DNA of 33,580 bases from an uncultured Porphyromonadaceae bacterium (GTDB lineage: Bacteria; Bacteroidota; Bacteroidia; Bacteroidales; Muribaculaceae), in contig CAMVDK010000003.1 of assembly GCA_947166165.1 (NCBI GenBank), positions 1 to 33,580 on the forward strand, given 5' to 3'. A program made the translations under genes and the position numbers. This document shows, piece by piece, positions 6,759-10,995 of this stretch (position 1 is its first letter; each line of letters starts with the position of its first letter). A model generated the notes under the pieces. That model searched no databases and was not told the DNA's origin. It worked only from the letters and a program-made list of their open reading frames with translations.

Positions 6759-6832
6759 TGGTGGGACAGGCAGGTGTCGAACCTGCGCCTCGGCTGGGAT
6801 TAGACCGCGAGCTACCGCTGCTCCACTGTCCC
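6759..6832 (-). tRNA. tRNA-like gene with encoded CCA; anticodon uncertain
   Basis: Minus-strand GGGACAG-TG-GAGC-AGCGGTA-GCTC-G-CGGTCTAATCCCAGCCG-AGGC-GCAGG-TTCGACA-CCTGC-CTGTCCC-A-CCA: perfect 7-bp acceptor, 4-bp D stem, 5-bp T stem with TTCGA loop. The anticodon stem is imperfect (C-G, G-C, G-C, T-G, C.A). Confidence 0.8.
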
Positions 6833-8245: not shown

Positions 8246-8497
8246 TTATTGGTTGTTGTTCTTGTTGCGCTTGATGATGATGGTCGCGCCGTTGTCTGGC
8301 GTGGTTACTTCAAACTCGGTAAAGCCTGCACGCTGGTTGAGGCGTGTGGACGCGCTCTTTACTGTGCTGAAAGGAGCAAAATCCACACACGATACTTCTA
8401 CAGTCGCACCCTGTTCTATGGTGAGCATACTCTCGGGAGTGTTCACCTGCGTCTCACGAATGACACGCATCTGATTTTTTTCTTGATTTTTTGCCAT
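8246..8497 (-). CDS. Small hypothetical protein, first gene of the leftward operon
   Basis: 83 aa ORF MAKNQEKNQMRVIRETQVNTPESMLTIEQGATVEV...; leader lies in the divergent intergenic region. Confidence 0.55.
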   Translation of the reverse strand: MAKNQEKNQMRVIRETQVNTPESMLTIEQGATVEVSCVDFAPFSTVKSASTRLNQRAGFTEFEVTTPDNGATIIIKRNKNNNQ

Positions 8498-8583: not shown

Positions 8584-8660
8584 CAAAGATAAGACGCTAA
8601 TTTGATTTATACAAGACTAATGTCTTATTTTCTGCAATTTTTAAGATTTATTAACAAGAC
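8584..8660. promoter_or_regulatory. Divergent promoter/operator region of the mobile element
   Basis: Palindrome AAGAC-TAAT-GTCTT (8613-8626) plus AAGAC copies at 8591-8595 and 8656-8660; minus-strand TATCTTTG matches the Bacteroidetes -7 box TAnnTTTG and abuts one AAGAC copy. Confidence 0.6.
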
Positions 8661-8671
8661 AACAGACTGAT

Positions 8672-9034
8672 ATGACTGGAAAACAACTAAAGGCAATGAT
8701 TGACGACCTCGGCATAACTCAAAGAAAACTTGCCGAGGAAATGGGTGTGACCCCACAAACTATAAGTGCAATTCTTACAGCCAAAGATGTCCGCACATCA
8801 ACTATCGAAAGAATTGCCGATGTGACAAAAATGCCTATCAGTTATTTCTTCAGAGAACATGATGGGCAAAGTGCGGTGGCGAACGGTGACGGCAGCGTGG
8901 CCGTGACTGGCAACAACAATGTGGCAGGCAACGTTACCATGGGCGACGCTGCCGTGCTTCAGGAACGCGTGACAATGTTGGAGAGGCTCCTCGAGGAAAA
9001 AGAGCGAACAATTAAAATTCTGATGCAGAGATGA
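8672..9034 (+). CDS. XRE-family transcriptional regulator with GNNN-type linker and C-terminal coiled coil (probable repressor)
   Basis: 120 aa; HTH 'ITQRKLAEEMGVTPQTISAILTAKDVRTSTIERIADV', then 'NGDGSVAVTGNNNVAGNVTMGD' and 'VLQERVTMLERLLEEKERTIKIL'. Confidence 0.85.
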   Translation: MTGKQLKAMIDDLGITQRKLAEEMGVTPQTISAILTAKDVRTSTIERIADVTKMPISYFFREHDGQSAVANGDGSVAVTGNNNVAGNVTMGDAAVLQERVTMLERLLEEKERTIKILMQR

Positions 9035-9396
9035 GTCGTCACGACTATTCTGGTATAGCTTCATGTTGTGTATTCTTACTTATATTCGTAGCAGGAATAG
9101 CAATGGGCATATATTTTTCTCCCAAAAAGCAACATGCTGATAGCGAGACAAAGAAAGACTCAATAGATTGGGCGATTGAATCCAAAAAGATTGTCATCAT
9201 TTGCGAGTCAGACAGTCTTTTCCACTATTCAACGATGTGTGAAATTCTTGGTCGTTCACCCAAAATTACCATTGAACATGTTGCACGACTCAAGGGAAAA
9301 TGGATGTGCCCTATTTGTGGAATTAAGGAAGCAGAATATGTCATTCACAAAGACGAATATCTTAATGATTTGAGAAGCGTTGATGAAGATAATTAA
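9031..9396 (+). CDS. Membrane-anchored small protein with Cys-containing C-terminal domain
   Basis: 121 aa; N-terminal TM 'IASCCVFLLIFVAGIAMGIYF'; 'IICESDSLFHYSTMCEILGRSPKITIEHVARLKGKWMCPICG'; ATGA overlap with the upstream stop. Confidence 0.7.
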   Translation: MSRHDYSGIASCCVFLLIFVAGIAMGIYFSPKKQHADSETKKDSIDWAIESKKIVIICESDSLFHYSTMCEILGRSPKITIEHVARLKGKWMCPICGIKEAEYVIHKDEYLNDLRSVDEDN

Positions 9397-9670
9397 AACA
9401 AAATATCCAATGAGACTACTATTGATTTTTTGTCTTGGGCTTGTATTATTATCTTGTTCTGACAATAAAGACAAGGTTGTAAAGATAGACATTAACACGG
9501 TGCAGATGCAAGATAGCGTGTGGATATGCACGAGCGAGAATGCAAAGCGGTTCCACGCAAGTGATACATGCGGTGGCATCTTGTCATGTGGAGAAGAAAT
9601 AAAGCAATTTACGAGAGAAGAAGCAGAACGGAACGGCAGAACTTACTGCCATAAATGCTACAAAACATGA
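9383..9670 (+). CDS. Small lipoprotein with related Cys-containing domain
   Basis: ATG at 9383; lipobox-like 'LGLVLLSCSDN'; 'WICTSENAKRFHASDTCGGILSCGEEIKQFTREEAERNGRTYCHKCYKT'. Confidence 0.7.
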   Translation: MKIIKTKYPMRLLLIFCLGLVLLSCSDNKDKVVKIDINTVQMQDSVWICTSENAKRFHASDTCGGILSCGEEIKQFTREEAERNGRTYCHKCYKT

Positions 9671-10026
9671 GCAATGACGACATAGCAAGACGCAAGTTCG
9701 ACCTGCTCATGGAGGCGGTTGAGCAAGTGAAACATCAGGACGCGGCGATGGACGAGCTTCGGCACGCAGCGTTCGAGGTGCTGCTGCTGCATCCCGGTTG
9801 CGAGCTTGAAGACTGGGGAGAGCTGCTTGCCGAGCAATACGGCACGGAACTGATAGACGCTTTCGGGAAAGACCTCGACAAGATAACCACCTCGGTCATC
9901 AAGATGTGGAAGTCGCCTTACCTCGACGAGAACAGCGGACTGGAGCGCAGCTACGAGGAATGGGCGCAGGCATTCGCCACGGAGGCGGCGGTGCAGATGT
10001 ATTACGACCTCATAACACCGACATGA
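9667..10026 (+). CDS. Acidic helical hypothetical protein
   Basis: ATG at 9667 overlaps the preceding TGA (ATGA): MSNDDIARRKFDLLMEAVEQVKHQDAAMDELRHAAFEVLLLHPGCELEDWGELLAEQYG... Confidence 0.65.
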   Translation: MSNDDIARRKFDLLMEAVEQVKHQDAAMDELRHAAFEVLLLHPGCELEDWGELLAEQYGTELIDAFGKDLDKITTSVIKMWKSPYLDENSGLERSYEEWAQAFATEAAVQMYYDLITPT

Positions 10027-10032
10027 TTTAAT

Positions 10033-10140
10033 ATGGATTTGAACAAACGTCTAACTCGCTCACTGGCAAAACCGAATAACAGCCGCGCAGGCAGCAGTGG
10101 AAGAATAAGCGAAAAAACGCTGAAAATTAGCGAAATATGA
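10033..10140 (+). CDS. 35-aa basic microprotein (candidate)
   Basis: MDLNKRLTRSLAKPNNSRAGSSGRISEKTLKISEI*; starts 6 nt after the upstream stop and its TGA merges with the terminator stem. Confidence 0.4.
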   Translation: MDLNKRLTRSLAKPNNSRAGSSGRISEKTLKISEI

Positions 10141-10179
10141 GGCAAATGTCTGGCAAACAGACACTTGCCTCACTTTTTT
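10139..10179 (+). terminator. Rho-independent terminator of the rightward mobile-element operon
   Basis: GAGGCAAATGTCTG-GCAAA-CAGACACTTGCCTC (14 bp, one mismatch) followed by ACTTTTTT. Confidence 0.88.
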
Positions 10180-10286
10180 CTGCACATCCTGCGCATTTCA
10201 AAAAAATTAGATGGCACCTGAAACAAAAAGACAAAAATGGTTGGTCTTCCGTCGATCAGGATAGCCCCATGAAGCGGATTTCGCTG

Positions 10287-10323: not shown

Positions 10324-10995
10324 ATGAAGAGACCCTACGTGATTTGCCACATGATGGCATCGATAGACGGTCGCATCGACTGCGACATGACGGAGCAGAT
10401 AGGTGGCAACGAATACTATGAGGCGTTGGAAATGCTCTGCTTCGACACGACCATCGAGGGAAAGACAACCGCCGTGAACCACTATGCCGAGAAAGAACTG
10501 TTCGTACCCCAAGACGCTACGCCTGTGGGTCGCGAGGAGATTTACAAAAGCCACGACTCGAAGCGGTGGGAGGCGGTGGTGGACACACGCGGCACCCTGC
10601 GATGGCCGGTGGACGACACGCCCGACCGCATCTGCATCGTGAGCCAACAGGCTTCGCGCGAATACCTCGACTATCTGCGCAGCCGCAGCATCTCCCACAT
10701 AGCAACCGGAGAGAAGGCCATCAACCTGCCCCGTGCGCTCAACATCCTGCAGTGTGAGTTCGGCAGCGAGAGGGTGGGGATTGTTGGTGGCGGCCACATC
10801 AACGGCAGTTTTCTGCGCGAAGGGTTACTCGACGAGGTGAGCATGCTCTACGGTGCTGCCATCGACGGTCGCGAGGGCTTCTGCGCAGCCTTCGACGGCA
10901 TCGAGTCCGACCATACCCATCCCTACATGCTCCGCTTAAAGAGCGTCCGCCAGATGGGCAACGACTCCGTGTGGATAAGGTATAGTATCATATAA
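10324..10995 (+). CDS. RibD C-terminal-domain / dihydrofolate reductase-like protein
   Basis: 223 aa; 'RPYVICHMMASIDGRIDC...ERVGIVGGGHINGSFLREGLLDEVSMLYGAAIDGREG'. Confidence 0.85.
   Translation: MKRPYVICHMMASIDGRIDCDMTEQIGGNEYYEALEMLCFDTTIEGKTTAVNHYAEKELFVPQDATPVGREEIYKSHDSKRWEAVVDTRGTLRWPVDDTPDRICIVSQQASREYLDYLRSRSISHIATGEKAINLPRALNILQCEFGSERVGIVGGGHINGSFLREGLLDEVSMLYGAAIDGREGFCAAFDGIESDHTHPYMLRLKSVRQMGNDSVWIRYSII

What the first reader, a model, noticed from the sequence alone, without database searches (positions are those of the whole stretch)
8672..10179. Compact overlapping 'lysogeny-side' operon: XRE repressor, two membrane-tethered Cys-domain proteins, acidic protein, microprotein and terminator
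Seen: XRE (8672-9034), 9031-9396 (ATGA overlap), 9383-9670 (14-bp overlap), 9667-10026 (ATGA overlap), a 35-aa ORF at 10033-10140 and a strong terminator at 10139-10179. Such tight overlaps suggest one co-expressed unit transcribed away from the lytic-type operon. Inference: genes co-transcribed with a repressor are often lysogenic-conversion functions such as superinfection exclusion, phage defence or envelope modification. The TM/lipoprotein anchoring would fit an envelope-acting system. I do not recognise this combination as a described system.
Basis: partly seen in the sequence, partly recalled or inferred. Interest (0 to 1): 0.72.

Follow-up and report, generated by a model that had tools for sequence, protein, structure and literature searches.

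The report
Prophage lysogeny module with envelope-protein slot
A dormant virus in a gut or rumen bacterium carries, right behind its own off-switch gene, two small proteins aimed at the cell envelope and a conserved acidic helper protein; relatives keep the same layout but swap the envelope proteins, which fits a system that shields the host from rival viruses.

Summary
Real, and better than chance. The four overlapping genes (XRE repressor 8672-9034, membrane Cys protein 9031-9396, Cys lipoprotein 9383-9670, acidic protein 9667-10026) form the lysogeny side of a Bacteroidales prophage. I compared 27 modules defined by a homologue of the acidic protein. All read: repressor, one to five swappable genes, acidic gene, then attachment site with integrase or host DNA. 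A cultured phage, Bacteroides phage BS-TP4, has this order. In 25 of 27 the slot holds a membrane or secreted protein; 11 of 27 hold a His-Cys3 (H-x4-C...C-x2-C) protein like the two here. The Cys pair also recurs with unrelated repressors. The acidic protein is a confident all-helical fold with no PDB match, and in one phage it is fused to a repressor-like HTH. Two details fail: the 35-aa 'microprotein' is conserved attachment-region DNA, not a gene, and the terminator probably belongs to the host, since phage similarity stops near 10111. Best reading: an exchangeable envelope cargo expressed with the repressor, most likely for superinfection exclusion, as with Ltp of phage TP-J34. That function is inferred, not shown. 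The acidic family is the most novel part and may be a repressor-linked regulator.

The parts
8584..8591 (-). candidate early (lytic) promoter -7 box TATCTTTG, with CTTG 20 nt upstream as a possible -33 box
   Evidence: pattern TANNTTTG; Bacteroidetes consensus is general knowledge; not experimentally tested
8591..8660 (.). candidate repressor operators: palindrome AAGACTAATGTCTT (8613-8626) plus half sites AAGAC at 8591 and 8656
   Evidence: only stretch of the window with four AAGAC/GTCTT half sites within 86 bp; palindrome; inferred function
8672..9034 (+). XRE-type repressor, HTH plus C-terminal coiled-coil-like tail, no S24 peptidase domain
   Evidence: Pfam HTH_3 E 5.6e-10; repressors at the same place in L002-L006 43-54% identical
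9031..9396 (+). tmCys: one N-terminal hydrophobic anchor, then a His-Cys3 domain (H-x4-C...C-x2-C)
   Evidence: homologues L043/L094 and L093, the latter with a lipobox instead of a TM anchor
9383..9670 (+). lipoCys: lipoprotein with Cys/His metal-site-like domain; true start may be 9410
   Evidence: invariant C49, H58, C63, C69, C89, C92 in 16 homologues; lipobox C25
9667..10026 (+). conserved acidic protein (pI 4.3), new mostly helical family of this lysogeny module
   Evidence: homologues; AlphaFold2 pLDDT 89; no PDB fold match; HTH-fused form in L065
10027..10111 (.). phage attachment-proximal DNA, conserved GCCGCGCAGGCAGCAGT core; end of detectable prophage sequence
   Evidence: 85/88 identity with L042 from the acidic gene's stop, then abrupt divergence at about 10112
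10033..10140 (+). 35-aa ORF: not supported as a gene
   Evidence: not kept in frame or length in relatives
10138..10179 (+). intrinsic terminator (14-bp stem, T-run), probably host DNA just outside the prophage
   Evidence: lies past the divergence point
10324..10995 (+). host RibD-like reductase gene flanking the prophage end
   Evidence: Pfam RibD_C E 2e-14; bases 10239-10266 just upstream weakly resemble the region upstream of the homologous gene in a same-genus genome (L087, E 0.22)

Best explanation
This is the lysogeny module at the right end of an integrated Bacteroidales temperate phage. The repressor shuts the divergent early promoter (operator over its -33 region, inferred). Its own transcript, the one made in the lysogen, also carries an exchangeable envelope cargo: tmCys, held in the inner membrane by one helix, and lipoCys, a lipoprotein; both put a His-Cys3, probably zinc-binding, domain outside the cytoplasm. 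The most likely job of this cargo is superinfection exclusion: in the lysogen it interferes with entry of competing phage DNA, as Ltp of phage TP-J34 does. The acidic protein ending the operon is cytoplasmic and near-constant; it probably works with the repressor or with excision rather than in the envelope. Shown: gene order, recurrence, swapping, anchor signals, shared motif, HTH fusion. Inferred: co-transcription, operator, zinc, topology, exclusion, the acidic protein's role.
For: 27 modules with an acidic-gene homologue all have at least one gene between repressor and acidic gene; 23 pass a hydrophobic-segment cut-off, and two more (L067, L072) are lipoproteins by inspection; 11 carry the H-x4-C...C-x2-C motif. 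Cultured phage BS-TP4: repressor, lipoprotein-like gene, acidic gene, integrase. tmCys and lipoCys sit side by side in L043/L094 and L093 behind other repressors. Anchors swap between TM helix and lipobox for the same domain, which places it outside the cytoplasm. The G210 prophage is bounded by a 19-bp repeat with integrase at one end and this module at the other, 64.3 kb. Precedent: ltp lies in the lysogeny module, is transcribed in the prophage and blocks DNA injection from outside the membrane (PMC3952083).
Against: No functional test exists. No match to a known exclusion or defence family; PADLOC hits are weak (tmCys to PDC-M14A E 0.0076). lipoCys relatives also occur as ordinary chromosomal lipoproteins, so the domain is not phage-specific. 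Some slot genes are soluble (L069, L073), or a protease or nuclease-like protein. Co-transcription is inferred from overlap only. The control ORFs were picked mechanically.
Confidence: 0.45

Rival explanations
1. The membrane and secreted proteins and the acidic protein are parts of the phage's own lysis-lysogeny control: an envelope sensor passes a signal through the acidic protein to the repressor, which lacks an S24 autocleavage domain in this phage.
For: The slot is never empty and is nearly always envelope-directed; the acidic domain is fused to a repressor-like HTH in L065, 35% identical to this window's repressor over 60 aa; the acidic gene is near-constant while the rest changes; this repressor has no peptidase domain.
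Against: The envelope proteins are unrelated between phages, and the same pair sits behind unrelated repressors in L043 and L093, both without the acidic gene; some relatives have longer repressors that look S24-like and could respond to SOS.
Confidence: 0.2
2. Lysogenic conversion unrelated to phages: the cargo benefits the host envelope (metal or redox handling, stress, competition), and the acidic protein is a separate phage factor.
For: lipoCys belongs to a family of chromosomal secreted lipoproteins; M48 peptidases occur in the slot of L059 and L061.
Against: Fast swapping of unrelated small envelope proteins at a repressor-linked site is more typical of phage-phage competition (general knowledge).
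Confidence: 0.25
3. Loose genomic neighbours with no joint function: gene order is an accident of modular phage evolution.
For: Variable content; no transcript data.
Against: Overlaps recur, constant order in 27 modules, motif enrichment 14/49 versus 0/182.
Confidence: 0.1

Closest known systems
Ltp superinfection-exclusion lipoprotein of Streptococcus phage TP-J34 (PMC3952083)
   Same: small lipoprotein gene inside the lysogeny module, expressed by the prophage, acts outside the cytoplasmic membrane
   Different: Gram-positive host; different protein family (no Pfam match here); exclusion is demonstrated for Ltp, not here
Lysis-lysogeny region of Pseudomonas phage Fc02 (olg1/sie1 and gene 10, PMC9936078)
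   Same: small exclusion gene placed with the repressor on the lysogen's transcript, overlapping genes
   Different: beetrevirus of Pseudomonas; located upstream of the repressor; no Cys domain or acidic partner described
P22 SieA (PMC10883804)
   Same: prophage-expressed membrane protein acting on incoming DNA
   Different: different protein and locus arrangement
Bacteroides phage BS-TP4 (PQ571277), gp58-gp61
   Same: repressor, lipoprotein-like gene, acidic homologue (31% identical), then integrase
   Different: its slot protein is unrelated (annotated PsbP-domain) and lacks the His-Cys3 motif
N-terminal zinc domain of Ada (PF02805)
   Same: small domain ending C-x2-C with an upstream H/C pair; predicted strand-helix-strand-helix-strand order (weak model); resemblance partly from memory
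   Different: no PF02805 match; a His stands at one ligand position; secreted

Membership tests
Temperate phage lysogeny module | repressor divergent from early genes, with attachment site and integrase at the far end | tested here: met
   divergent early operon with RecT, SNF2, HU; relatives L063, L067, L092 have integrase next; G210 prophage bounded by a 19-bp repeat; the window's own integrase lies off the contig
Superinfection-exclusion lipoproteins of the Ltp type | prophage lipoprotein gene in the lysogeny module | tested here: met
Superinfection-exclusion lipoproteins of the Ltp type | Ltp sequence domain | tested here: not met
   no Pfam match for lipoCys or its homologues
Superinfection-exclusion lipoproteins of the Ltp type | blocks DNA entry of other phages | not testable with these tools
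   needs phage challenge
Ada_Zn_binding (PF02805) | profile match above cut-off | tested here: not met
CI-type repressor | XRE helix-turn-helix | tested here: met
CI-type repressor | S24 autocleavage domain | tested here: not met
   120-aa protein; Pfam matches cover only the HTH
Known anti-phage defence systems (PADLOC) | convincing match to a core defence protein | tested here: not met
   best non-HTH window hit E 0.0076

The most novel reading that the evidence does not exclude
The acidic protein founds a new family of repressor-linked regulators with an unseen fold, and together with a swappable envelope protein it forms a sensor that couples events at the cell envelope, such as arrival of another phage, to the prophage's decision to stay or leave.
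Probability: 0.15. Interest if true: 0.78.

Novelty: new variant of a known kind. Interest (0 to 1): 0.5.

Why it matters
Superinfection exclusion and lysogeny control in Bacteroidales phages are little described. A fixed slot behind the repressor, marked by one conserved acidic gene, gives a simple handle for collecting candidate exclusion proteins from many prophages and testing them, and the acidic family itself has an unassigned fold and role.

Tried and rejected
Microprotein 10033-10140 as a gene: rejected. Ada-family membership: rejected by profile, kept only as a resemblance. PDB relatives of the acidic and Cys families by sequence and fold: none convincing; the lipoCys model is weak (pLDDT 57.5), so its fold search means little. 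BSAP-5i immunity hit of lipoCys covers mainly the signal-peptide end: rejected. Trypco2 resemblance in slots of L042 and L066 is below Pfam's cut-off: noted only. Single-sequence viral-contig scans with the three cargo and acidic proteins found nothing; profile and repressor queries did. Alignment A4 had no searchable stretch. No close relative of the L063 integrase in the MAG.

Full report
What is there. They run away from a leftward operon that begins at 8497 and encodes phage early proteins: RecT, an SNF2-type helicase, HU, DUF1064 and a Lin1244-like protein. To the right, from 10324, lie host genes (RibD-like, aldo/keto reductase). The window is the start of a contig of a fragmented Bacteroidales MAG, so the rest of the prophage, with its integrase, is missing from the contig; a search of the MAG with a relative's integrase found no close match.

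Related modules. The acidic protein proved the best handle. It has homologues in 17 other genomes of the 247 searched in the host's family, and in no other genome of 393 sampled across the order, few of which were from that family. It is in 21 viral contigs and, at 31% identity, in the cultured Bacteroides phage BS-TP4. In 27 non-redundant modules the order is repressor, one to five genes, acidic gene, then either an integrase or host DNA where the contig reaches that far. The G210 prophage shows the geometry: a 19-bp direct repeat at 8856 and 73130, the integrase just inside one end and this module just inside the other, 64.3 kb apart. BS-TP4 is 64.3 kb, with the integrase directly after the acidic gene.

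The slot. The genes between repressor and acidic gene change from phage to phage but keep a character. 37 of 49 have a strong hydrophobic segment, against 47 of 182 ORFs on the early strand of the same loci; 14 of 49 have the H-x4-C...C-x2-C motif, against none of 182 (the control ORFs were picked mechanically, so the numbers are indicative). Two modules flagged negative, L067 and L072, are lipoproteins by eye, so 25 of 27 modules carry an envelope protein; L069 and L073 have only a soluble one. Other slot contents are M48 peptidases, an Mrr-like protein with membrane segments and Trypco2-like proteins below cut-off; the slot of L093, which lacks the acidic gene, holds a DUF6864 protein.

The two Cys proteins. 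tmCys and lipoCys share a weak but aligned His-Cys3 pattern (hhalign P 3.7e-4), and a second lipoprotein family in other slots aligns too. lipoCys homologues keep six Cys/His positions. tmCys is rare: window, G135 (nearly the same sequence as L094) and L093, each time directly before lipoCys and behind different repressors. In L093 the tmCys homologue has a lipobox in place of the helix, so the domain most likely sits outside the cytoplasm. lipoCys relatives also occur as chromosomal lipoproteins, so phages appear to have recruited a host family.

The acidic protein. pI is near 4.1 in almost all homologues. AlphaFold2 gives a confident, mostly helical fold (pLDDT 89) with no PDB match and two uncharacterised phage relatives. 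In L065 the same domain is the C-terminal part of a protein whose first 60 residues are 35% identical to this window's repressor HTH. That fusion is the best clue that it works with the repressor.

The right-hand end. From the stop of the acidic gene, window and L042 agree at 85 of 88 bases, then diverge abruptly near 10112. The 35-aa ORF spans this border; in L042 it is cut after 27 codons, and in other phages the same DNA is read in other frames. It is attachment-region DNA, not a gene. The terminator lies beyond the border. L042 and the phages have a different terminator-like repeat there, so this one is probably chromosomal; it could still end the lysogenic transcript.

Control region. The intergenic region has four AAGAC/GTCTT half sites within 86 bp, including a perfect palindrome at 8613-8626, the only such cluster in the window. 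They surround a Bacteroidetes-type -7 box for the leftward promoter. This fits a repressor operator over the early promoter but is untested.

Interpretation. The lysogeny-module location, the repressor linkage, the swapping of small envelope proteins and the precedent of Ltp and of the Fc02 exclusion genes make superinfection exclusion the best single reading of the cargo, at about 0.45. General lysogenic conversion and a sensing role in phage control remain open.

Noticed in passing
window 6759-6832 (-); L043 3150-3222; L067 4411-4482; L055 11109-11180; L058 10428-10680; L060 3371-4012: A tRNA-like gene sits next to recT in several of these phages, with varying and sometimes odd anticodons (ATC, AGA, TTG, CGC, CAC); the window copy does not reach Rfam's tRNA cut-off.
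   Followed up: partly
L052 7088-8863 and L053 5033-8217: Two same-genus genomes share a chromosomal cluster with a lipoCys homologue, two tiny membrane proteins and larger membrane proteins, of unknown function.
   Followed up: no
L055 7609-8952: A membrane-anchored Mrr-like nuclease with a near-cut-off sunset-domain match at its C-terminus occupies the same slot in another prophage.
   Followed up: no
L042 2941-3219: A 92-aa Cas2-like protein (PADLOC Cas2b E 0.00095, weak) lies in the slot of a close relative.
   Followed up: no
L105 1511-17686 and 35987-37477 (phage BS-TP4): The cultured phage with this module also carries a reverse transcriptase gene and a 16-kb gene.
   Followed up: no
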